Assembly: GCA_013204545.1 (NCBI GenBank) | Contig: JABMNN010000120.1 | Coordinates: forward strand, 62,001 to 126,000 | Reading direction: 5' to 3' | From: Chloroflexota bacterium | Lineage (GTDB): Bacteria; Chloroflexota; Dehalococcoidia; Lucifugimonadales; Lucifugimonadaceae | Length of the DNA: 64,000 nt | Shown here: positions 32,524 through 42,344 of the stretch, in pieces | How the letters are laid out: each line of letters starts with the position of its first letter | How positions within the stretch are numbered: the first letter of the stretch is position 1 | Program-made: the position numbers and the translations under genes | Notes under the pieces: generated by a model | The model's input: the letters and a program-made list of their open reading frames with translations, nothing else | The model's database searches: none | Told to the model about the DNA's origin: nothing

Positions 32524-33786
32524 ATGGAACTCCTCAGAATTGCCACAGCCGGATCAGTCGACGATGGTAAAAGCACGCTCATTGGGCGACTGCTGTTCGA
32601 CTCGAAAGCGATCTACGACGACGTGCTTGATTCAGCTGAACGCCACAGTCGTAAACAAAGCTCCGAATATTTCAACCTAGCGCTGCTTACCGATGGTCTT
32701 CGGGCCGAACGAGAGCAGGGAATCACAATTGATGTTGCTTATCGCTACTTCGCTACCCCTAAACGAAAGTTCATCCTCGCTGATACTCCCGGGCATGTTC
32801 AGTACACACGGAATATGGTTACGGGTGCTTCGACCGCTGACGTTGCGCTAGTGATCGTTGATGCCCGTCATGGGGTGGTTGAGCAGTCGCGTCGTCACGC
32901 AGTGATTGCCGCATTGCTTGGAATCAGGCACGTTGTCGTTTGCATCAACAAGATGGACCTCGTCGGCTACAGCGAGGAAGTGTTCAGGCCGATTCAATCT
33001 GATCTTCATGCGCTACTACAGGAACTCGAAATCGAGTCGCACCACTTCATTCCTATATCCGCTCTTCAGGGCGACAACGTTGTTGAGCACTCCGAACACA
33101 TGCCCTGGTATGACGAGGGGCCTCTGCTCCCTTATCTTGAACAGCTAGTGCTTCCTGATCTCACCCATGACAAACCGTTCAGGTTTCCTGTTCAGTACGT
33201 AATCCGACCTTTGAGCAATGAGTTTCACGACTACCGTGGATACGCTGGGACGATTGCGAGTGGGACGGTCAAGGTAGGGCAAGAGATCGCAGTCATGCCC
33301 TCTGGGGCGACGACGATTGTCACCGCAATCGAATCACCACAGGGTGAAGTTTCCTCAGCATCAGAAAAAGAAGCTGTGACAATTCGAATCGCAGACAATC
33401 TGGATATATCCCGTGGTGCGATGTTGAGCAGTGCGACTGAACGACCGAGAACCGACAACACGATTGATGCCACGATCTGTTGGATGGGCGAGAAGACCTC
33501 GCTCAAGCCAGGTGCAATGCTTAGAATCAAACATACGACTCACACAGCTCGTGTGATGGTTAACTCCCTTCAGTGCAAGATCGATATCAACCAAATCTCG
33601 GTCACCGGATCCTGTGAAGAACTTAGGCTGAACGAAATCGGCCAGGTGACTCTTCGTAGCAGTGAGCCGCTTGTGTATGACGATTATGCAGGTAGTCGAG
33701 GGACCGGAAGCTTCATTTTAATTGACGAAACGACGAATGACACCGTCGCTGCCGGCATGATTGGCAGACCCAAATTCCTCGGGTAG
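32524..33786 (+). CDS. cysN: Sulfate adenylyltransferase subunit 1 (GTPase)
   Basis: The 420-residue translation-factor GTPase has GSVDDGKST (10-18), the switch II DTPGHVQYTRNM and NKMD, then beta-barrel domains ending GMIGRPKFLG. It powers APS synthesis by CysD through GTP hydrolysis. There is no fused CysC kinase domain. Its last nine codons form the left end of the putative integrative element: a diverged second copy of the same coding tail lies at 38608-38640, so the present 3' end may have been brought in by the element. Confidence 0.96.
   Translation: MELLRIATAGSVDDGKSTLIGRLLFDSKAIYDDVLDSAERHSRKQSSEYFNLALLTDGLRAEREQGITIDVAYRYFATPKRKFILADTPGHVQYTRNMVTGASTADVALVIVDARHGVVEQSRRHAVIAALLGIRHVVVCINKMDLVGYSEEVFRPIQSDLHALLQELEIESHHFIPISALQGDNVVEHSEHMPWYDEGPLLPYLEQLVLPDLTHDKPFRFPVQYVIRPLSNEFHDYRGYAGTIASGTVKVGQEIAVMPSGATTIVTAIESPQGEVSSASEKEAVTIRIADNLDISRGAMLSSATERPRTDNTIDATICWMGEKTSLKPGAMLRIKHTTHTARVMVNSLQCKIDINQISVTGSCEELRLNEIGQVTLRSSEPLVYDDYAGSRGTGSFILIDETTNDTVAAGMIGRPKFLG
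33754..33780 (+). repeat. Left attachment-site candidate (attL) in cysN
   Basis: The segment starts GGCATGAT and ends TTCCTC, just before the cysN stop at 33784. Shared blocks with the right copy are GGCATGAT, GG, AGACC and TTCCTC in the same order and spacing. Crossover is most likely within GGCATGAT, the longest identical block. Confidence 0.55.
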
Positions 33787-34029
33787 TACGTGGCGCTTTC
33801 GGTGTTAGAGTCTTCGGCTAGTTAGATTCGGATCTAGCAACAGATCTCTATAGAACTTTCTAACTTCTACTTCTGAAGGCTCTCGATCTGGTAGTAATGT
33901 TCGTACTTTGTTGCGGTCGCTGCCGTAATTTCCTCTACTCCGTCGATTCAGCGGTCTAGATTACGACTTGGAGTGCTGCCGTCCGTTGGCGAGAATATAT
34001 TGAAGAATCGACGCTCATTCGGATGTGCT
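33787..34029. other. Non-coding left end of the element
   Basis: About 240 bp after the cysN stop contain no frame with protein-like features. I see no strong hairpin or repeat. Confidence 0.4.
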
Positions 34030-34149
34030 CTGTCGATCATTCAGACTTCATTCGACCACAGCACTGCTTTCGACATCGCGTGCCAAGGCCAAGGCGCATC
34101 ACGGCAACAAGGATTCAGTGATCGATTATGCGTATCAACTGGCCAATGA
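34030..34149 (+). pseudogene. Decayed 3' end of a pdxA-family gene
   Basis: One frame reads SIIQTSFDHSTAFDIACQGQ and, after a one-base shift near 34090, another reads KAHHGNKDSVIDYAYQLAN. Together they match the C-terminus of the intact pdxA-like gene at 41334-42344 ([20 protein letters not shown] and NHANMVSAIDYAYSLA), and the DNA aligns along about 110 bp with many synonymous differences. It is a fragment with no start, not a functional gene. Its position just inside the left end of the integrated element suggests past rearrangement around a DUF1537/pdxA unit. Confidence 0.8.
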
Positions 34150-34168
34150 TCAGCACGTATATAACCCC

Positions 34169-35032
34169 CTATTCAAGCAGATCCCTGTAGTACTCCCTGA
34201 CCTCGTCCTCAGTGGGTGAGCGATCACCTGTCACAGGCAGTGTCAGTCTTCTGTGATTGTTGGCGGTACCCACAGCACGTGAATCAACGTGATCGATCCA
34301 GCGTTTGGCAAGATTTCCCCCGTGAATGTTACTAAACCGACCTAATACGCTGTTCCAACTTCCGTTGGGCCGTGGGTTGCCATCGAGTAAAAAATGGGCT
34401 ATCAGGTGCCCGCGAATACTTTCAACTTGTGGAGTCCCATGTTCAGCGGGAACCCTAAAATTCTCGACGAGTGACGAATCGTACAACCTCTCATAAATAG
34501 CGATGTGGCCGATCAAGCGATGGCACATCAAACAGATGACTGGAGGAGAGTCTTCTTGATAATCAATGTTGTCGGGTAACTCGGCAAGCCACATGTCTGT
34601 TAGAGGAATGTCCCAAACTCTGATCAGCCCGAGATCCGTCCACAACTCAATATCGCACGAGTAGTTATAAATTGCCCGTCGAACTACTTCGTACGTGGTT
34701 CTCCTGCTCGTTGGCACCCTCTTGGCGACTGCGGTCATCGGTCTTCCGCCGAGGAAAGAGAATAAAACCCGGCGTATTCCGGGAATAGTTTTTTTCCGGA
34801 GCTCGTAACTGATCCCTCTAGACGGAGCTATGTGAAAATCTCCGAACCACGGGAACTTCTCGGCTCCTAAAGTGAGGGCCCTAGAATATTCGTCAGGATC
34901 TTCGAGAGCTCGAGGTAGGGCGATTAGATCGAGTTCGATTCGCTGGGATCTGGGCTCATTTCGCTTAGAAAACGGGTTGATTACCGGTTGATACGGATCG
35001 TTTTGTTCTTGTTTTCGTTGAAATAGATTCAT
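34169..35032 (-). CDS. Unknown protein of the integrative element
   Basis: The 287-residue soluble protein is not recognised. A helix-turn-helix-like stretch (GGRPMTAVAKRVPTSRRTTY, about residues 94-113) resembles the DNA-binding part of transposases and element regulators. A single CxxC (CLMC) lies near residue 172, followed by a His-rich C-terminal half. It faces the cysN side and precedes, on the same strand, nothing but the pdxA remnant. A role in element maintenance or as cargo is possible. Confidence 0.7.
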   Translation of the reverse strand: MNLFQRKQEQNDPYQPVINPFSKRNEPRSQRIELDLIALPRALEDPDEYSRALTLGAEKFPWFGDFHIAPSRGISYELRKKTIPGIRRVLFSFLGGRPMTAVAKRVPTSRRTTYEVVRRAIYNYSCDIELWTDLGLIRVWDIPLTDMWLAELPDNIDYQEDSPPVICLMCHRLIGHIAIYERLYDSSLVENFRVPAEHGTPQVESIRGHLIAHFLLDGNPRPNGSWNSVLGRFSNIHGGNLAKRWIDHVDSRAVGTANNHRRLTLPVTGDRSPTEDEVREYYRDLLE

Positions 35033-35097
35033 TTTGGTCGTGCAACTCCTGTTTTTCGGTGTGCAACTACGTGCGATTGACGTGTTACGGATGTGCG

Positions 35098-35463
35098 TTA
35101 TTTCGCATCGGTTTTTTTAATCCGAGCTGACGACGGGACTCTGGCGAACCAAAAGATCGGCAGGTGTGCTGCGGCCACTAAAAGCCGATGACCCTCAAGT
35201 ACACCTACGCCGAGTCGCACTAATCCCCGAGCAATTTTGACAACAATAGTTCTGCTGAGATTGGCTTTGATTCCGTTCTCAATCCGATGTAGATATGGAC
35301 GACCAACCCCGCTTAGTTCAGCGAGGCGATAGTTGCTGCAGCCAAACTTCTCGCGAAACCGGCTAAGAGTGACTGAGGGCTCCTCATCAGGGTCGCCGAA
35401 GAACGGATTCACGCTTTTGGAAGCTGAGCCATTCTCGCTTCCTGATTGCCTTTGTAACTTCAT
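35098..35463 (-). CDS. XRE-type transcriptional regulator
   Basis: The 121-residue protein contains a Cro/CI-type helix-turn-helix: FGCSNYRLAELSGVGRPYLH then RIENGIKANLS, roughly residues 38-68. The C-terminal part is hydrophobic and short. It is divergent from a second XRE gene at 35798, with two repeat structures between them, the arrangement of a switch in phage and integrative elements. Which genes it controls is inferred only from position. Confidence 0.8.
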   Translation of the reverse strand: MKLQRQSGSENGSASKSVNPFFGDPDEEPSVTLSRFREKFGCSNYRLAELSGVGRPYLHRIENGIKANLSRTIVVKIARGLVRLGVGVLEGHRLLVAAAHLPIFWFARVPSSARIKKTDAK

Positions 35464-35676
35464 CTGTTTTTCCTCGTTCTTTTAGGTGTATCCATGTTTA
35501 GTTCTGTTCACTTCCTGTATTCCTTATCCGCCACCTTCTCGGTGTGAGCCCAAGGCCCAAATGTGGACGGCCTGTGAGCCACGTTCGCCGTTAGTGGCGT
35601 CAATCGCTTTAAGTGCCTGACAGACGCCGATCCGTTCATGTGGTCGAATTTGCCCTTTTTGAGATGACCTAGACCG

Positions 35677-35692
35677 TCCCAAGAATTTGGGA
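35677..35692. promoter_or_regulatory. Candidate XRE operator (palindrome)
   Basis: TCCCAA-GAAT-TTGGGA has perfect 6-bp arms, sited in the divergent XRE control region. Size and symmetry suit a Cro/CI-type dimer. Confidence 0.35.
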
Positions 35693-35751
35693 AAGCCAAT
35701 ACGTAATACCTCTATTACTCGGAATTTGAACTCGAATTGTTGTGGGAAAAT

Positions 35752-35767
35752 CGCGACAGCGCGACAG
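35752..35767. repeat. Tandem CGCGACAG repeat
   Basis: Two perfect copies of CGCGACAG lie head to tail, ending 30 bp before the start of the plus-strand XRE gene. They could be an operator or a short slippage repeat. Confidence 0.4.
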
Positions 35768-35797
35768 TTAGCTATTGCCGGGCACATGGGAGTTAAT

Positions 35798-36265
35798 ATG
35801 AACAAAGATCTTCTCGAGCATTCCTTTTCACACACCCTTCGGGGTGTACTAGACGACTACGTAATTAGTAACTACAAACTTGCCAAGACAAGTGGATTGG
35901 ATCCGGGTCACGTATCACGTCTCGTGAACGGATCACGAAACCGGCCACAGAGCAAGACGGTCCAAAAATTGACCCATGCACTCGCGAGACTCGGTGTTAG
36001 TAATACCGACATATCCCGAGTTCAGATATCCGCGGGATTCAAACCTTTTGGTGGAGTGACTGATACTCCACTTGTTGAAACCCCTCGCAGACCCGAACGA
36101 CGAAGTCGAGAGACCAATAAGAATGTCGATCCGTCGAAGATCGTTTTGAAAATGGGATCCGGCATCTCGGTCCAAGACGTCAGTAAAAAAACCGAACGAC
36201 GAGAATTCATTCACGCTAAGATCGACATGGACGATGGTGATAGGCCTTACACAGTGATACTTTGA
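35798..36265 (+). CDS. XRE-type transcriptional regulator
   Basis: An ATG at 35798 follows GGGAG (35788-35792) and gives 155 residues. The frame is open farther upstream but has no better site. The helix-turn-helix reads DDYVISNYKLAKTSGLDPGH then VSRLVNGSRNRPQS. The C-terminal half (about 80-155) is charged, rich in Arg, Thr and Lys, and probably flexible. Divergent from the other XRE gene and convergent with the recombinases. Confidence 0.8.
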   Translation: MNKDLLEHSFSHTLRGVLDDYVISNYKLAKTSGLDPGHVSRLVNGSRNRPQSKTVQKLTHALARLGVSNTDISRVQISAGFKPFGGVTDTPLVETPRRPERRSRETNKNVDPSKIVLKMGSGISVQDVSKKTERREFIHAKIDMDDGDRPYTVIL

Positions 36266-36306
36266 GAAGTATCCCTCCGGCCATGCCTGCTCCCGGGCTT
36301 GTTGTC

Positions 36307-37311
36307 TCAACGCCTGCCCCCTAGCTGGCTGATCCAGAGTTCCCCTGGGCTTTGATTAGCGAATTGCCCAGATGATGCAGGGGCAATACTCCGCCGATCT
36401 CTCGACGACAATCGATCTATCGTGCTGAGACTTCTGGTGGCTTCAGCTACTTGAACTCCGGTGAAATGAAGGTAGTGCAGCACCATGTCCATGCTTGAAT
36501 GCCCCAGAGCTTCTTTTAGAAGAAAAGCGCTTCCACCGGCCAGCAGGAACGCCGAAGCGAAACTGTGGCGAAGAAGATGTGGATGAAGCCGTGAAATTCC
36601 CGAACGCCCGCGTAGGCGTACGAAAAGCTGGTAGAGAGACCCTCGGTTCATGTTTCTACCGATAGACGAGACGAAAATGCGCTCCGAGAGACAGTCGTTG
36701 GGCCTTTCGTGGAGCATGTAGGCCGTGATGTATTTCGCAGTCGTACGCCCAAATGACACGATGCGTTCACGGCGACCTTTTCCTAGAACTTTAAGCGTCG
36801 CTCGATTGATGTTCAGGTCCTCAATCTTTGCTCCCGTAAGCTCGCTCGCTCTCAGCCCCGAATCCAGCATCAAGCTCACGATTGCAACGTCTCGTCTGTA
36901 GATAGATGCAGCTTGCAACAAGGTCGTAACTTCGAAGTCTGATAGAACGTCGATCGTTTGTGTGAGTATCTTCGGGGGCCTGAAGTCTTTTAGAAGATGA
37001 ATTTCTGTGTATTGGTTCCGGTAGAGCCATGAACAGAACGCCCTAATGCAGCGAACGTGACCATTTATCGTCGAAGATGAAAGTGGTCGGCCCTTGAAAC
37101 GTCTATCCCTAAGCGACGCACAGTAACGCCGGAAGTGTTCCTCGGTTAGTTCGCATGCTAAAGTCTCTACTGGGATGCCAGATTCGGACTTGAACATCTG
37201 TGGGATCGCGTAGTTGTACCAACGGAGGGTGTCGTCACTCTTCATCTCAGACCTGTTGAAGAGTTGGAACATATCAAACGCTATTCCCATCGGTGTATTT
37301 CTCTTATCCAT
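36307..37311 (-). CDS. Tyrosine recombinase 1
   Basis: The start is ATG 37311, preceded by GAAAGGTG; a longer frame to 37365 lacks a site. It gives 334 residues. A SAM-like N-terminal core-binding domain precedes the catalytic domain, which has all conserved residues: Arg in SGLRASELTG, Lys in VLGKGRRER, HxxR in HLLRHSF, His in LGHSS and the nucleophile Tyr in LHYLHF. It should cut and join DNA at the element's attachment sites. A palindrome of TTGCCA/TGGCAA type lies 87 bp upstream. Confidence 0.93.
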   Translation of the reverse strand: MDKRNTPMGIAFDMFQLFNRSEMKSDDTLRWYNYAIPQMFKSESGIPVETLACELTEEHFRRYCASLRDRRFKGRPLSSSTINGHVRCIRAFCSWLYRNQYTEIHLLKDFRPPKILTQTIDVLSDFEVTTLLQAASIYRRDVAIVSLMLDSGLRASELTGAKIEDLNINRATLKVLGKGRRERIVSFGRTTAKYITAYMLHERPNDCLSERIFVSSIGRNMNRGSLYQLFVRLRGRSGISRLHPHLLRHSFASAFLLAGGSAFLLKEALGHSSMDMVLHYLHFTGVQVAEATRSLSTIDRLSSRDRRSIAPASSGQFANQSPGELWISQLGGRR

Positions 37312-37397
37312 GTGGAGCACCTTTCTCGGGTGAATCTGCCTGTAAATCACGATTGCAATCAACAAATTCAGTATTGAACGGACGTGTTTTTATCGAA

Positions 37398-37416
37398 AGT
37401 TGCCAGTGTGGCAACT
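37398..37416. promoter_or_regulatory. Palindrome upstream of recombinase 1
   Basis: AGTTGCCA-GTG-TGGCAACT has perfect 8-bp arms and a 3-bp spacer, between the two recombinase genes. The same core TTGCCA-N3-TGGCAA recurs upstream of the second recombinase. It is either an operator or a recombinase-binding site. Confidence 0.6.
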
Positions 37417-37440
37417 GCCGGAATCAGAGTGGAAGGTGGT

Positions 37441-38382
37441 CTAGATGGGGCGTATCAATTTATGGAGTGAAAACGCACTACTACCAGCGTCGAGTAGTGA
37501 GGCTTTTCTACTGAGTTCGTAATTACTCACTCCGGCCATTCGAATGTATGTGGCTACAGCCTTAAACGATGTATGCCCCATGTTTTCTCGTAAGAGGAAC
37601 GAATCACCGCCCTGTGCTAAAAACCTGTTCGCATACGTAACCCTGAACAGATGCCAGTGGAGTCTTTTGATTCTCGTGTTCTTACGAACTGTGGCGAGCC
37701 TTGCTTGAAGTTTTGCTCCCGTAAATGCAGTTCCATCTTCATTGATAAACAGGGTGTCAGAGAGTGGATGAATGAGTTCCCTCCAAACTAGGTGACGTTC
37801 TACGAGCTGTTGGAAGGTGTTCCCAAACGGGACCATTCGCCACTTTCTTCGTTTTCCAAAAACCCGCACGGTCTGGTTATCGAAGTTCACGTCTTCAAGT
37901 TTCAAAATTGCGAGCTCAGTGCGTCTCAGTCCGCATTCGAGAGCGAGCGCAATGATCGCAGTCAGTTGAGGAGAACGTAGAGTGCTTGAGAAAATCCTCT
38001 TGATTTCATCGTCGGTTAGGGGTTCGAAGAGCTGATAGTCGGCCCGAGGAGGAGTCATGGTTTGTAGTAGAGGATTAGGAACAATCTCTGATTGATGTGC
38101 CCACTTAAAAAAACGTCTTAGTACAAGGAATTCGGTATTCATTGTCGAAAACCTCATACCTTTCCCTCCTCTACCCAATTCCCTGCGGTCAATTAGATAG
38201 TGAAGCAGGCGTTCCTCTTTTATGTCATCACATCTGAACTCGTCGCCAAGCCCGTAATCAGAATCAACAAGAAACTTAAGTACTCTTTTTGCAGTTTCAG
38301 ATGTGTTGTGCCCCCAGCCCGATGCTTTTCCTTGAAGCAGGTAAAAATTCCTAATTTCCCCGATGGTGTTGAGTTCGTCCAT
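37441..38382 (-). CDS. Tyrosine recombinase 2
   Basis: The 313-residue protein has the full catalytic set: Arg in CGLRRTELA, Lys in VFGKRRKWR, HxxR in HLFRVTY, His in MGHTSF and Tyr in ATYIRM. It is only distantly like recombinase 1, so the pair is not a recent duplication. It lies upstream of recombinase 1 on the same strand and nearest the right end of the element. Two TTGCCA/TGGCAA palindromes stand 14 and 56 bp before its start. Both recombinases may act together as in other paired systems. Confidence 0.93.
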   Translation of the reverse strand: MDELNTIGEIRNFYLLQGKASGWGHNTSETAKRVLKFLVDSDYGLGDEFRCDDIKEERLLHYLIDRRELGRGGKGMRFSTMNTEFLVLRRFFKWAHQSEIVPNPLLQTMTPPRADYQLFEPLTDDEIKRIFSSTLRSPQLTAIIALALECGLRRTELAILKLEDVNFDNQTVRVFGKRRKWRMVPFGNTFQQLVERHLVWRELIHPLSDTLFINEDGTAFTGAKLQARLATVRKNTRIKRLHWHLFRVTYANRFLAQGGDSFLLRENMGHTSFKAVATYIRMAGVSNYELSRKASLLDAGSSAFSLHKLIRPI

Positions 38383-38395
38383 AGATTGAATCCCC

Positions 38396-38407
38396 TGGCA
38401 ATTGCCA
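38396..38407. promoter_or_regulatory. Palindrome TGGCAATTGCCA upstream of recombinase 2
   Basis: A perfect 12-bp palindrome 14 bp before the recombinase 2 start, made of the same half-sites as the two larger palindromes but in the opposite order and without spacer. Its position over the ribosome-binding or early promoter region suits repression. Confidence 0.5.
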
Positions 38408-38437
38408 TGCGGCTTAGATTGTGTAATTCAACTTGAA

Positions 38438-38462
38438 ACACATTGCCAATCTGGCAACGTGT
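38438..38462. promoter_or_regulatory. Palindrome upstream of recombinase 2
   Basis: ACACATTGCCA-ATC-TGGCAACGTGT has 11-bp arms with one mismatch and a 3-bp spacer, 56 bp upstream of the recombinase 2 start. It shares its core and spacer length with the palindrome at 37398-37416, which marks it as a specific binding site. Confidence 0.6.
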
Positions 38463-38996
38463 GCTTGCGGGGGCAGATCAACAGATCGAGGCAGAACGCC
38501 TTTTTCGGAGATTTCGACCTATTTTTTTCGGACTAAGTGACATTTCGAGATTGAAAAATGCTTAGTTACGCCAGAAAAATATGATGAGTCGCAAATCATT
38601 ATTGGAAGGCATGATAGGAAGACCGCGCTTCCTCAAATAGCGCATGGTGTATCCGGAATTAGCACCCGCGGGTACCTAGATCCGGATCCTTCAGCAGGTT
38701 TCAGCTGGATCTTAGGTACATTCCGGTCGTATGGACGATGATATTTATTTCAATCGTGTGGGTGCTTAGCAGATCTTCGTTCTGTGAACGTGCATGCCAG
38801 TTTTTGGACCTCAGAACTAATTCAAGAATTTTTGTTCGGTAACCTGTGGCCAAGTCGCGATGCGCTGGAACAGGTTTTCTGAGAGAGTAGCAGGGTGTCA
38901 GTCTTCGATGCGCACGATTTCCAGGTGATCGAGGATAAGGTGCTTCCAAACTGACCACTACTTGATTATTTAGCCCACTGACACAAAGACCTATCT
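38463..38996. other. Right end of the element and degenerate sequence beyond
   Basis: Apart from the displaced cysN tail at 38608-38640 I see no intact gene. Short open stretches at 38720-38960 on either strand are broken by stops and carry nothing I recognise. They may be relics of a gene that once followed cysN. Confidence 0.45.
38608..38634 (+). repeat. Right attachment-site candidate (attR), displaced cysN tail
   Basis: This 27-bp segment repeats the end of cysN with six substitutions and reads, with the codons after it, GMIGRPRFLK and TAG at 38638-38640. The differences preserve the protein, suggesting it is the tail of a cysN allele displaced at integration rather than a recent duplication. 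It lies 226 bp upstream of the second recombinase start. Confidence 0.6.
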
Positions 38997-39692
38997 GTGC
39001 TGAGAAAAATCAATAAATTTCGACTCCGAGTTCGACACAGGCTTTTTAGAACTGTATTGGGTCGAATAATTAAATTGGAACCAATGCAGGGACTCAGACG
39101 AGTTGGCTCGGAGGGAGCCCCTTGGACCGTCCCTCTGGATGAGTTTGACAGTTCGTCGGTGTGTTACCTGGCCGGAGTTGGTGAAGATATAACCTTTGAT
39201 ATTGCATTGGTCGAACAAGCCCGCTGTAAGGCTCACTCGTTCGATCCGACACCACGCGCAGCTACTCACATAGAGTCACTTAACCTGCCAGACGGCTACA
39301 CTTTCCACAAATTCGGTATTTGGTCGTCGGATACGACCCTAAAATTTTTCGCACCTGAAAACCCATCGAACGTTTCGCACTCGATTCTAAATCTGCAAAG
39401 AACCGAGGAATATTTTGAGGCGGGCGTGCGCCGGCTCAAATCTATAATGGATGAACTTGGTCACACTGAGCTAGACCTCCTGAAAATTGACATTGAAGGC
39501 GCCGAATACGAAGTGCTGGAGTCAATCATCGAGGATGATCTGAAGATCAAATACCTGTGTGTCGATTTCGATCAGCCGTACCCGATTATCAAGACCTTAA
39601 TAATGCTTCGTCGTTTGCGGAGACACGGGTACTTGCCAGTAGCCGTCGATGGCTGGGACATCTCGTTCGCATTCAAGTCACCTGTAAAGTGA
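38997..39692 (+). CDS. FkbM-family methyltransferase
   Basis: The 231-residue protein has the FkbM pattern: VCYLAGVGEDITFDIALVEQ in place of the usual VIDVGAN loop, AHSFDPTPRA and LLKIDIEGAEYEVL. It starts at GTG 38997 with no clear ribosome site. Methyltransferases of this type usually O-methylate sugars. It stands alone outside the polysaccharide locus, next to the element's right end, so it may have arrived with the insertion or been cut off from its original neighbours. Confidence 0.82.
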   Translation: MLRKINKFRLRVRHRLFRTVLGRIIKLEPMQGLRRVGSEGAPWTVPLDEFDSSSVCYLAGVGEDITFDIALVEQARCKAHSFDPTPRAATHIESLNLPDGYTFHKFGIWSSDTTLKFFAPENPSNVSHSILNLQRTEEYFEAGVRRLKSIMDELGHTELDLLKIDIEGAEYEVLESIIEDDLKIKYLCVDFDQPYPIIKTLIMLRRLRRHGYLPVAVDGWDISFAFKSPVK

Positions 39693-39999
39693 TCTGGAGC
39701 AGAATTCTGCTATTGCAGAGAAATTGTTACTAGGTTTGATAGCGGTCGAAAGTCTGGTCGAGTATGAATTTACTCGACAAATCTGCTTACGGGAGCGAGA
39801 AAATTGCGATTCGCTTGTCGCTGCAGTTGGCGACTCACCCGACTGATGATATTGACTGGCGTATGCCCTCAATTAGCGAAATAATTGGAACACATGATCA
39901 GGCGCCCCCTCAGCCGTATTTGAGTAATTTTGGCACCTAGTGTTTGGCCTGGGCTGTTGTATAGTTTTGTCTTAGTCACATGAACCAATCACCTGAACT
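39693..39999. other. Intergenic gap of about 300 bp
   Basis: No gene I can name. One 50-codon frame on the plus strand (ATG near 39767 to TAG near 39939) reads KIAIRLSLQLATHPTDD then IDWRMPSISEIIG, without a clear ribosome site. It could be a small gene or a relic. The rest should hold the promoter of the DUF1537 gene. Confidence 0.35.
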
Positions 40000-41271
40000 T
40001 TGAACGAATCAACAACTCCTCTCGTTGGAATTTTCGCTGACGATCTGACCGGTGCACTCGATGCGGCCGCACCTTTCGCCGCTCGTGGTTTCCGAACGCT
40101 CGTGTCGCCAACATCTGAATTGCCGGTAGGCGCTGAAGGCGCTGAGGTGATTTCAGTTAATCTTGGAACGAGGCATTTAGACCCTAGGGCGATTGCCGAA
40201 CGCACGCACCAAGCCGTTATCGAGTTGGGGAAACTCGGTGTGAAAATCTTGCTAAACAAGATTGATTCAACGTTACGAGGGAATCCTGGAATCGAACTTC
40301 TTGCTGCGATTAATGCTGTCTCAGGCGATCATGCTGTGCTGTGCTCAGCGTATCCACAAAACCTGCGCACGATAGCCGATGGAGTGTTGCTGGTGGATGG
40401 CATACCTGTTGTAGATACAGATGTTGGACAAGATAAATTATCTCCTTTGCTCTCTAGTCGTGTCGTGGAGATCTTGGCTTCTTCATTAGAGCGAGCAGGG
40501 CTAGCTGATCGGGTGCACGTTCGAGGTGCTGATAATGGAATGGCAGTCACCGACCTTTTGCCAGTAATTATTTCTCTCGATGCTAGAACAGAAGACGATC
40601 TTAGCGGTCTCGCTCGGCGTCTAGTAAATACAGGGTCGACGACATTGGTCGCTGGGTCAGCGGGAATTTCGATAGCGATTGCCGACGAATTGAGCACGAG
40701 ATGGCAACCGAGAAGAGCTTCACAGGAAGACGACGTGTGGGGACGGCGGATATTGATAGTTACTGCGTCGCAGCGTTCAGTGGTTTATGAGCAAGTCGCC
40801 GTGTTGGGCGGTAGTGTCGATCTGATCCATGCTGAGGTGTCGGTCGATGAAGCCTTTGATGGGATTACCACCGATTCGATTAGGCGAATAAGCGAGCTGA
40901 TCAAGCAAGATGGGGTCGCAGTTCTAAAGCTAGAGAAAGTGAATCCCTCCGGTGAGCTTGGCATCGATGAACTTCGCTTGTTGGCGAAACGAATTATTCT
41001 CAATCTTGGAATTGCAGTTCGGAAGATTACGGATGCCGCCAACCCCAATACGTTGATTGTGATTGGCGGTGACACAACGAGCGGAGTTCTCTCTGCTTGC
41101 GATGTGACAACGCTTGAGCTACGAGGTGAACTTCAACCTGGAACTGTAATCGGTGTCTCCGTTGACGGATCGTTGACTAGAACGTGCCTGATTACTCGTG
41201 CCGGCGGGTTCGGTGATGAAAACTCGTTGTTAGATCTTGTGACGCTATTAGAGTTCGGTCACAGCGTGTAG
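40000..41271 (+). CDS. Four-carbon acid sugar kinase (DUF1537/OtnK family)
   Basis: The 423-residue protein has the N-terminal FADDLTGALDAAAPFA, NKIDSTLRGNPGIE and C-terminal GGDTTSGVL of DUF1537 kinases. These ATP-dependent enzymes phosphorylate D-threonate, L-threonate or D-erythronate at the 4-position. The PdxA2-like dehydrogenase that oxidises such 4-phosphates follows 62 bp downstream, so a two-step catabolic pathway is strongly suggested. The start is TTG at 40000. The aldolase or decarboxylase for later steps is not in the window. Confidence 0.9.
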   Translation: MNESTTPLVGIFADDLTGALDAAAPFAARGFRTLVSPTSELPVGAEGAEVISVNLGTRHLDPRAIAERTHQAVIELGKLGVKILLNKIDSTLRGNPGIELLAAINAVSGDHAVLCSAYPQNLRTIADGVLLVDGIPVVDTDVGQDKLSPLLSSRVVEILASSLERAGLADRVHVRGADNGMAVTDLLPVIISLDARTEDDLSGLARRLVNTGSTTLVAGSAGISIAIADELSTRWQPRRASQEDDVWGRRILIVTASQRSVVYEQVAVLGGSVDLIHAEVSVDEAFDGITTDSIRRISELIKQDGVAVLKLEKVNPSGELGIDELRLLAKRIILNLGIAVRKITDAANPNTLIVIGGDTTSGVLSACDVTTLELRGELQPGTVIGVSVDGSLTRTCLITRAGGFGDENSLLDLVTLLEFGHSV

Positions 41272-41333
41272 TCTTTTCACCAGAATCTAACCTCTTCTTT
41301 TCCTAGAAATAGAAACGGCAATTGATCCAGCGA

Positions 41334-42344
41334 ATGATAACTTCTCAAACTGAACTTCCCGTAATTCTTGTAACTTTGGGCGACCCAGCAGGTGTGGGAC
41401 CTGAAGTGACCGTTAAAGGCATCGCCGAAGAGTTATCTCGAGGTCGAGTCAGACTTGTGATTGTCGGTGACGTAAGAGTCGTTGCTTCGGCCGCCGGTAA
41501 GTTTGCTCCCGGATACTCGGTAATCAAGGTTGATAATCCCCGTGATGCTCAGGCATCGTCAAGAGCAATCAACGTTCTCGATATCGCTAACTGTGAACCG
41601 GCAAAGTTCAGGATCGGTGAGGTTGCCGCCTATACAGGTAATGCCGCCTATGAATACGTTGTTCGGGCGGCTGAGCTTTGTCTGGCAGGAGAAGCGGACG
41701 GAATCGTTACTGCTCCACTCAACAAGAAGGCGATGGTAATGGCCGGGCACGAATTCGACGGGCATACCGGATTATTGGCGCACTTATGCAACGTCGATAC
41801 TCAGTACATGATCCTCGGGTCGCCGAAGCTACGAGTTATTCACCTAACGACGCACCTGTCGCTTGTTGATGCTCTGAAACTAGTCAAGACTGACCGAATC
41901 GTTAAGTGCGCCCGCGCTGCGAACGATCATGCGAAACAGCTTGGATTTGCCCAGCCCCGAATCGCCGTGTGTGGAGTGAATCCGCACTCAGGCGACGGCG
42001 GACTGTTCGGCGTTGAAGAAGCCGAAGAGATTGCCCCGGCGATTGAGATTTTGCGAGCCGAAGGCATTGATGCCGATGGGCCGGTATCGCCTGATTCTGC
42101 TTACCGAATTGCCTACGAAGGTGGGTATGACATTGTCGTTGCGATGTATCACGATCAAGGTCATATTCCGATGAAATTAATCGGATTTAACTCTGGCGTT
42201 AACGTTACTGTTGGCCTGCCGATCATTCGTACTTCGGTCGACCACGGCACTGCATTTGACATTGCCTGGCAGGGTAAGGCGAATCACGCCAACATGGTTT
42301 CAGCGATTGATTACGCGTATTCGCTGGCTACAGGTTCTAGATGA
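41334..42344 (+). CDS. pdxA2: 4-phospho-sugar-acid dehydrogenase, PdxA2 family
   Basis: The protein shows VTLGDPAGVGPEVTVK, the metal-binding HEFDGHTGLLAHLC and MYHDQGHIPMKL, and the C-terminal IIRTSVDHGTAFDIA of the PdxA family. The neighbouring DUF1537 kinase indicates the PdxA2 branch, which oxidises D-threonate or D-erythronate 4-phosphate, rather than vitamin B6 synthesis. I use ATG 41334; a TTG at 41322 is also possible. A decayed copy of the 3' end of a related gene lies at 34030-34149. Confidence 0.9.
   Translation: MITSQTELPVILVTLGDPAGVGPEVTVKGIAEELSRGRVRLVIVGDVRVVASAAGKFAPGYSVIKVDNPRDAQASSRAINVLDIANCEPAKFRIGEVAAYTGNAAYEYVVRAAELCLAGEADGIVTAPLNKKAMVMAGHEFDGHTGLLAHLCNVDTQYMILGSPKLRVIHLTTHLSLVDALKLVKTDRIVKCARAANDHAKQLGFAQPRIAVCGVNPHSGDGGLFGVEEAEEIAPAIEILRAEGIDADGPVSPDSAYRIAYEGGYDIVVAMYHDQGHIPMKLIGFNSGVNVTVGLPIIRTSVDHGTAFDIAWQGKANHANMVSAIDYAYSLATGSR

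What the first reader, a model, noticed from the sequence alone, without database searches (positions are those of the whole stretch)
33754..38640. Integrative element that uses the end of cysN as attachment site and swaps its tail
The last codons of cysN recur 4.85 kb downstream as GMIGRPRFLK and TAG, with 21 of 27 bases shared and protein-preserving differences. Between them lie two tyrosine recombinases, two XRE genes and an unknown protein, with the recombinases next to the right copy. This fits integration into cysN with replacement of its 3' end. I know of no described element family targeting cysN, and at under 5 kb without transfer genes it would be very compact.
Basis: partly seen in the sequence, partly recalled or inferred. 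Interest (0 to 1): 0.8.

Follow-up and report, generated by a model that had tools for sequence, protein, structure and literature searches.

The report
Mobile element swaps ends of genes
A small mobile DNA element in a marine SAR202-type bacterium appears to insert at the end of the sulfate-activation gene cysN and give the gene a replacement tail, leaving the old tail stranded downstream, and a related element in a cultured relative does the same to the neighbouring gene pdxA.

Summary
In 9 of 12 other cysN loci from relatives, a kinase gene follows cysN within 64-111 bp; in the window the gap is 6,240 bp. Those nine cysN genes end GRPxYL...; the window's ends GRPKFLG*. So the window holds three tail copies: an intact element (33.76-38.61 kb) plus an older remnant with an FkbM methyltransferase gene (38.64-39.88 kb).

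Another genome, G014, has a cysN-tail copy between a 68%-identical partial recombinase and the kinase. In Candidatus Lucifugimonas marina JH1073 a homologous five-gene element sits at the 3' end of pdxA, two genes from cysN, with a 147-nt tail duplication. TTATTGGAAG abuts the displaced tail in both target types. The window element also carries a decayed pdxA tail (79% identical to the window's own pdxA), which suggests a past retargeting or a hybrid.

The class is known (site-specific integration with target-gene regeneration); apparently new are the targets cysN and pdxA, the gene order and the target switch. Excision was not shown. New variant of a known kind.

The parts
32524..33786 (+). 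cysN, sulfate adenylyltransferase large subunit, the target gene; 420 aa here against 424 aa in 9 of the 12 other-genome loci (two others 426 and 420, one cut)
   Evidence: TIGR02034 E 3.5e-162; lengths
33754..33786 (+). left tail copy on the working cysN; GMIGRPKFLG*, element-type; shared core GGCATGAT at 33754-33761
33838..33945 (-). remnant of the C-terminus of a second copy of the unknown protein
   Evidence: profile A1: 11.9 bits in 33787-34168; best of 300 shuffles of 33787-34030 was 6.3 bits
34030..34143 (+). decayed, frameshifted pdxA 3' end inside the element
   Evidence: 79% identical to the window's own pdxA 42216-42328, blastn E 6.6e-22; 0 of 200 shuffles
34169..35032 (-). unknown 287-aa protein, marker of the element family
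   Evidence: 48 and 47% identical to the protein at the same place in the pdxA elements of G013 and G014; no match at the limits used in Pfam, NCBIfam, PHROGs or PADLOC
35098..35463 (-). XRE-type HTH regulator
   Evidence: HTH_3 E 3.1e-9
35687..36265 (+). second HTH protein, opposite strand
   Evidence: HTH_3 22.4 bits, just under the cut-off of 23
36307..37365 (-). tyrosine recombinase RecA (name used here, not the repair protein)
   Evidence: Phage_integrase E 1.4e-30; R172, K196, H263, R266, H289, Y298 invariant in A3
37400..37414 (+). palindrome TTGCCAGTGTGGCAA in front of RecA; possible operator
   Evidence: one of two matches to TTGCCANNNTGGCAA in the window; 2 of 100 shuffles reach two
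37441..38382 (-). tyrosine recombinase RecB (name used here), next to the right end
   Evidence: Phage_integrase E 3.5e-24; 67-68% identical to the partial RecB of G014:C152
38443..38457 (+). palindrome TTGCCAATCTGGCAA in front of RecB; possible operator
   Evidence: one match in front of RecB in G014:C152, none in L095 or L107
38599..38608 (+). element right-end motif TTATTGGAAG abutting the tail copy
   Evidence: same in G014:C152 and G013; TTGTTGGAAG in G014:C124
38608..38640 (+). middle tail copy; GMIGRPRFLK*, element-type; core at 38608-38615
38641..39883 (.). remnant of an older element in tandem (inferred); absent from empty sites
   Evidence: no recombinase or unknown-protein relic found in 38641-39000 or 39690-39884
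38997..39692 (+). FkbM-family methyltransferase, likely cargo of the older element (inferred)
   Evidence: PF05050 E 1.5e-12
39894..39940 (+). third, decayed tail copy: the displaced original host cysN tail, followed by the host intergenic sequence
   Evidence: 0 of 500 shuffles against G014:C152 and against G013, G008 and both G007 loci; 11, 13, 25 and 100 of 500 for G014:C133, G005, G009, G017
40000..41271 (+). kinase gene (GIFADDLTGALD motif) that directly follows cysN in relatives
   Evidence: the name four-carbon acid sugar kinase is recalled, not from a call
41322..42344 (+). pdxA (name recalled, not from a call), unoccupied in this genome; the target of the related element in G013

Best explanation
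A compact site-specific integrative element whose attP carries a copy of the cysN 3' end. Shown: empty sites, the occupied site, three tail copies, tail types, a conserved right-end motif, a second occupied cysN-type junction, and homologous elements at pdxA. Inferred: the circle recombines with the chromosome at a core of about 8 bp (GGCATGAT in cysN, AACGTTAC in pdxA) beside TTATTGGAAG, using RecB and RecA as a pair; DNA right of the core at the left junction comes from the element, so cysN gets a new in-frame tail and stop, and the old tail is pushed to the right end. In the window this happened at least twice: an older element (now an FkbM-bearing remnant ending in the host tail), then the present one at the regenerated tail. 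The present element probably descends from, or recombined with, a pdxA-targeting element.
For: Empty sites at 9 of 12 other cysN loci. The stranded tail reads through its stop into host intergenic DNA: window 39894-39979 against G013, 0 of 500 shuffles; also 0 of 500 for G008 and both G007 loci and for G014:C152. Tail types: GRPxYL in 9 of 9 empty loci, GRPKFLG* in the window's working gene. G014:C152: RecB 68%, motif, cysN tail, kinase. TTGGAAGGNATGATNGGNNGNCC in 19 genus genomes: 0 mismatches only at the window's middle copy and G014:C152. G013: unknown protein, XRE, HTH, RecA, RecB at the pdxA 3' end with a 147-nt tail repeat, 78% identical; over 47 codons 28 differ, 24 synonymously, and the distal copy has the amino-acid type of pdxA genes without a neighbouring element. 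Tree of 24 recombinases: the four RecB form one clade (99/97), and all seven element recombinases plus three from G021/G097 part from the 14 others (98/97).
Against: No excision data. No left junction is known for the G014:C152 element. The core is placed by comparison, and an identical block of 8 bp is short. For pdxA the nucleotide distances do not by themselves say which tail is foreign: G013 left against G007 80.9%, right against G007 79.4%; amino acids do. Four of eight empty sites compared align weakly to the third copy (11, 13, 25 and 100 of 500 shuffles). The third copy's match to the att pattern at 3 mismatches is no evidence by itself: 20 matches in all against 17 for the reversed control. 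No recombinase relic was found in the older remnant. In G014:C124 only about 22-24 nt of the displaced pdxA tail remain, by eye. The tree does not resolve RecA as one group, and warns of long branches.
Confidence: 0.87

Rival explanations
1. Chance or gene-conversion similarity: the second cysN tail is unrelated, or a random short duplication, and the recombinases are bystanders.
For: The short match alone is modest: 24 of 33 against a maximum of 22 in 100 Markov windows; 36 of 500 shuffles in a gapped test.
Against: Empty sites, a second genome with RecB, motif, tail and kinase, the third copy continuing into host DNA, and the same architecture at pdxA with a 147-nt repeat.
Confidence: 0.02
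2. A dead composite: ordinary homologous recombination between several decayed elements made the array, and the present recombinases no longer act on cysN.
For: pdxA relic, unknown-protein remnant, decayed third tail and a recombinase-free remnant. RecB has V after HxxR, where the G013 and G014:C124 RecB proteins have H.
Against: Both recombinases, the unknown protein and both HTH frames are open; the motif and core are intact at 38599-38615.
Confidence: 0.25
3. One 6.1-kb element running from cysN to 39940 with the methyltransferase as cargo; the middle tail copy is an internal duplication and not an attachment site.
For: The stretch 33787-39940 is missing between cysN and the kinase at empty sites.
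Against: The perfect motif plus core abuts the middle copy and RecB, as in G014:C152, where the next gene is directly the kinase; the third copy has only a degenerate motif (ATTGGAACACATGATC; 17 of 5000 shuffles).
Confidence: 0.1

Closest known systems
Genomic islands and prophages that regenerate their target gene (tDNA islands of Islander, PMC4383910; icd, fis and late-gene sites, PMC10111431)
   Same: Integrase, regenerated target gene and displaced fragment marking the ends; tandems with an internal att site; in PMC10111431 even a complex tandem whose internal att belongs to another target, close to the pdxA relic here (passages; of PMC4383910 only the start of the abstract in the listings).
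   Different: Target is cysN or pdxA, recombinases come as an adjacent pair, no phage or transfer genes recognised, under 5 kb. That e14-like prophages restore the tail of icd is recalled, not read.
Paired or single tyrosine recombinases beside tRNA genes in the same class of bacteria
   Same: Found by the RecB profile. Of 8 loci that I picked from that list, 6 have a recombinase within about 135 bp of a tRNA gene and 4 (L155-L158) have two full-length recombinases; all these score higher with the RecA profile than with the RecB profile.
   Different: tRNA target. In 5 of those 6 the recombinase lies just past the tRNA 3' end, where here it lies beside the displaced tail at the far end. In L155 and L158 a gene on the other strand separates the two recombinases.
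GInt (PMC5385486)
   Same: Several tyrosine recombinases, imperfect direct repeats, protein-gene target (abstract and first part of the results read).
   Different: ginABCD operon with three integrases and a small HLH protein, all four essential; [quoted passage not shown]
Strand-biased circularizing elements, RIT elements, Tn554 (PMC10214605; PMC8138268; passages)
   Same: Two or more tyrosine recombinases; RIT and Tn554 TnpA recombinases are placed among the simple ones without an arm-binding domain.
   Different: SEs have tfp between intA and intB plus srap, and are reported from Gammaproteobacteria; RITs have three recombinases; Tn554 has TnpA, TnpB and TnpC.

Membership tests
Site-specific integrative element with target-gene regeneration | Empty site in relatives | tested here: met
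   9 of 12 other cysN loci
Site-specific integrative element with target-gene regeneration | Displaced target fragment at the far end and regenerated target | tested here: met
   39894-39940 host tail, 33754-33786 new tail
Site-specific integrative element with target-gene regeneration | Excision as a circle restoring attB | not testable with these tools
   no reads or cells at hand
Site-specific integrative element with target-gene regeneration | Intact tyrosine recombinase | tested here: met
ICE/IME | Relaxase or conjugation genes | tested here: not met
   none among the 6 proteins scanned from 33787-39940 by Pfam; one of them, the unknown protein, has no match at all
GInt | ginABCD: three integrases plus GinD | tested here: not met
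   two recombinases only in 33787-39940; no GinD sequence was compared
SE | intA-tfp-intB-srap order | tested here: not met
   no gene between RecB and RecA: 75 bp apart in the window, overlapping in G013
RIT | Three recombinases in a row | tested here: not met
   two in the window, G013 and G014:C124
Tn554 | TnpA/TnpB sequence kinship and TnpC | not tested
   no Tn554 protein was compared; the best NCBIfam matches were XerA, XerC and XerD models, all below their cut-offs
Prophage | Phage structural genes, or kin in phage records | tested here: not met
   unknown protein: no match in phages or viral contigs; RecB profile: none in viral contigs; no phage structural family among the window proteins scanned

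The most novel reading that the evidence does not exclude
A small family of paired-recombinase elements, seen so far only in one SAR202-type genus, that changes target by acquiring new gene tails: the recombinase-side arm (TTATTGGAAG) stays, while the 8-bp core and the carried tail switch between neighbouring housekeeping genes (pdxA, cysN). The window element would be a fossilised switch, carrying the old pdxA tail beside its unknown-protein gene and cysN tails at its ends. Repeated visits have rewritten the C-terminal residues of host enzymes.
Probability: 0.4. Interest if true: 0.66.

Novelty: new variant of a known kind. Interest (0 to 1): 0.52.

Why it matters
It is a natural record of how a site-specific integrase may change target. 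Two sister element types at neighbouring genes share one recombinase-side arm and differ in core and carried tail, and one element holds relics of both. Because a complete genome of a cultured host exists (Ca. L. marina JH1073), excision and target choice can be tested. It also suggests that C-terminal variation in a core sulfur enzyme can come from a mobile element and not from the host lineage.

Tried and rejected
Structure of the unknown protein: AlphaFold2 on three sequences gave mean pLDDT 35.7, so no fold search was made. Viral contigs: no relatives of the unknown protein or RecB; the cysN-type end pattern was absent; the pdxA-type 18-mer had two hits, neither followed by a pdxA tail by eye. 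The motif in front of the pdxA relic (33998-34007) is weak (161 of 5000 shuffles) and is not used. A nucleotide alignment of the unknown-protein remnant gave nothing usable; only the profile test was kept. A search for an element right end left of the third copy found nothing (248 and 75 of 500 shuffles). G004:C49 and the second copy in G013 hold distant relatives of the unknown protein; among the open frames listed I saw no recombinase beside them, and in G004 a repeat search showed no tail duplication that I could recognise. G018's cysN tail (GRPEFIH*) could be an old footprint, but no relic was found after it. Rows: one search printed 11 other loci (8 empty); G015, for which its pattern printed nothing, was added (kinase at 94 bp); G006 runs off its contig and is not counted. 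Of recombinase-like hits in the class only 8 loci were opened.
Full report
What is there. The window (G000:C112:62001-126000) carries cysD and cysN, then 6.2 kb, then a kinase gene and pdxA. On its own it is only somewhat better than chance (24 against a maximum of 22 in 100 Markov windows; a gapped test of the last 30 nt over 5,200 nt gives 36 of 500 shuffles), so I turned to relatives.

Empty sites. A search with CysN over 60 genomes found orthologs in same-genus genomes and in one of another genus. In 9 of 12 other loci (G014:C133, G013, G008, two in G007, G005, G017 and G009; G015) the kinase motif begins 64-111 bp after the cysN stop; G010, G018 and G036 have another neighbour; G006 runs off its contig and is not counted. 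The window has 6,240 bp. All nine empty loci end GRPxYL; the window ends GRPKFLG* and is four residues shorter than nine of the twelve other-genome proteins. No clear second tail lies in the 110 nt after the nine empty stops (lowest 30 of 500 shuffles, G017, and 41, G007:C82), but with so short a query this test has little power.

The stranded tail. At 39894-39940 the window has ATGATC...CCGTATTTGAG...TAG, which aligns through the stop and on into the intergenic region with G013 (39894-39979), G008 and both G007 loci (0 of 500 shuffles each), and more weakly with G014:C133, G005, G009 and G017 (11, 13, 25, 100 of 500; G015 was not in that test). It also aligns with the occupied G014:C152 site over 39884-40003 (0 of 500). 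I read it as the original host tail with a 5-nt insertion. Hence the insertion is 33787-39940, and the copy at 38608 is an internal att site.

A second occupied site. G014:C152 reads RecB (68% identical, cut by the contig end), TTATTGGAAGG, a cysN tail GMIGRPPYLVN*, then the kinase. The sequence from RecB to the tail aligns with the window's over 250 bp (0 of 500). G014 also has an empty cysN-kinase locus on C133; the two kinases are 64% identical, so the MAG holds two such clusters, by paralogy or by mixing of genomes. The pattern TTGGAAGGNATGATNGGNNGNCC with up to 3 mismatches has 20 matches in 19 genus genomes against 17 for the reversed control, so loose matches mean nothing; perfect matches are found only at the window's middle copy and at G014:C152.

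The pdxA elements. In G013, which links to Candidatus Lucifugimonas marina JH1073 (one contig of the same length), the cysN site is empty but the same gene order - unknown protein, XRE, HTH, RecA, RecB - follows pdxA, with a 147-nt repeat of the pdxA end at 78%. The HTH gene there is a different protein (296 aa). G014 has the same set on C124, beside what looks by eye like the same next gene, with the unknown protein's C-terminus after pdxA on C133. G017 has that C-terminus, with one stop, after pdxA before its contig ends. The working pdxA of G013 and G014 ends AWEGK...IEYAYKLATGTGG[EQ]*, while the displaced G013 copy ends AWQGK...IDYAYRLATGSG*, 97.9% identical to G007's over 47 residues. This fits tail replacement again; nucleotide distances alone are not decisive. 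In G014:C124 only about 22-24 nt of the displaced tail remain after TTGTTGGAAG, by eye.

Att anatomy. Across both targets the element's right end is TTATTGGAAG (TTGTTGGAAG in G014:C124), then a block shared by both junctions: GGCATGAT for cysN in the window, AACGTTAC for pdxA in G013. I infer that this is the crossover region. That RecA and RecB act as a pair is inferred from their adjacency and intact catalytic residues. The palindrome TTGCCANNNTGGCAA occurs twice in the window, in front of RecA (37400) and RecB (38443); 2 of 100 shuffles reach two matches. G014:C152 has it in front of RecB; L095 and L107 have none. It may be an operator for one of the HTH proteins.

Chimera. The window element carries a decayed pdxA end at 34030-34143, nearest to the window's own pdxA (79%, E 6.6e-22; 0 of 200 shuffles), just where the pdxA tail stands in the pdxA elements. 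Between it and the cysN tail is a C-terminal remnant of a second unknown-protein gene (11.9 bits against a shuffle maximum of 6.3). So the element is probably a hybrid with, or a descendant of, a pdxA-type element. A PICI tandem whose internal att belongs to another target, for which the authors suggest homologous recombination of a circle, is a published parallel (PMC10111431, passages).

Spread. The unknown protein was found in 3 of 393 class genomes (all same genus; G014 and G017 are not among the rows shown), 5 of 19 genus genomes, 1 of 400 phylum genomes (the window's own), no phage record and no viral contig. Recombinases that match the RecB profile at E 1e-35 occur in 49 of 393 class genomes, which includes general recombinases such as the G010 one. 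Of 8 loci that I picked from them, 6 have a recombinase within about 135 bp of a tRNA gene, 4 have two full-length recombinases, and the recombinases score higher with the RecA than with the RecB profile. So the family may sit within a larger tRNA-targeting stock; I did not test this with a tree. In a tree of 24 recombinases the four RecB form one clade (99/97); the seven element recombinases and three from G021 and G097 part from 14 others (98/97); RecA is not resolved as one group, and long-branch warnings apply.

Literature. Two searches with cysN as one of four terms, three required (338 and 53 papers, 20 and 10 listed) list no paper holding cysN and, by their ranking, hold none with all four terms; sulfate adenylyltransferase with integrative element and attB and pdxA with integrase and attachment site found none; a search on SAR202 with integrase or genomic island (10 of 2,168 listed) showed nothing on point; one paper names Lucifugimonas, with genomic islands but no integrase in its main text (passages). 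GInts (abstract and first part of the results), SEs/RIT/Tn554 (passages) and the recombinase classification (passages) were seen as stated; what I saw describes no such gene order. The held library is partial.

Verdict. The kind is known; the targets, the gene order and the apparent target switch look new.

Noticed in passing
L155 4510-7800; L156 3665-6497; L157 5595-8527; L158 1587-4859: Pairs of tyrosine recombinases; in L155, L157 and L158 one lies directly beside a tRNA gene, and in L155, L156 and L158 another gene lies between the two. Possibly an undescribed tRNA-targeting relative in the same class.
   Followed up: partly
window 37400-37414 and 38443-38457: Two copies of the palindrome TTGCCANNNTGGCAA, one in front of each recombinase gene and nowhere else in the window; one also before RecB in G014:C152. 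Perhaps an operator for an HTH protein.
   Followed up: partly
L122 6598-10672 (G017:C33): A distant relative of the unknown protein lies near a large serine-recombinase-like gene (name by eye), so the protein may belong to other mobile elements too.
   Followed up: no
L120 7308-8210 (G013) and L121 8949-9452 (G004): Further distant copies of the unknown protein upstream of what looks like the same MFS transporter gene in two genomes; no recombinase seen among the open frames listed beside them.
   Followed up: partly
L096 7115-8377 (G018): cysN of 420 aa ending GRPEFIH*, unlike the GRPxYL of empty sites, with a different next gene; perhaps the footprint of a lost element.
   Followed up: partly
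G014:C133 and G014:C152; G007:C55 and G007:C82: Two cysN-kinase or kinase-pdxA clusters in one MAG each; paralogous clusters or mixed genomes.
   Followed up: no
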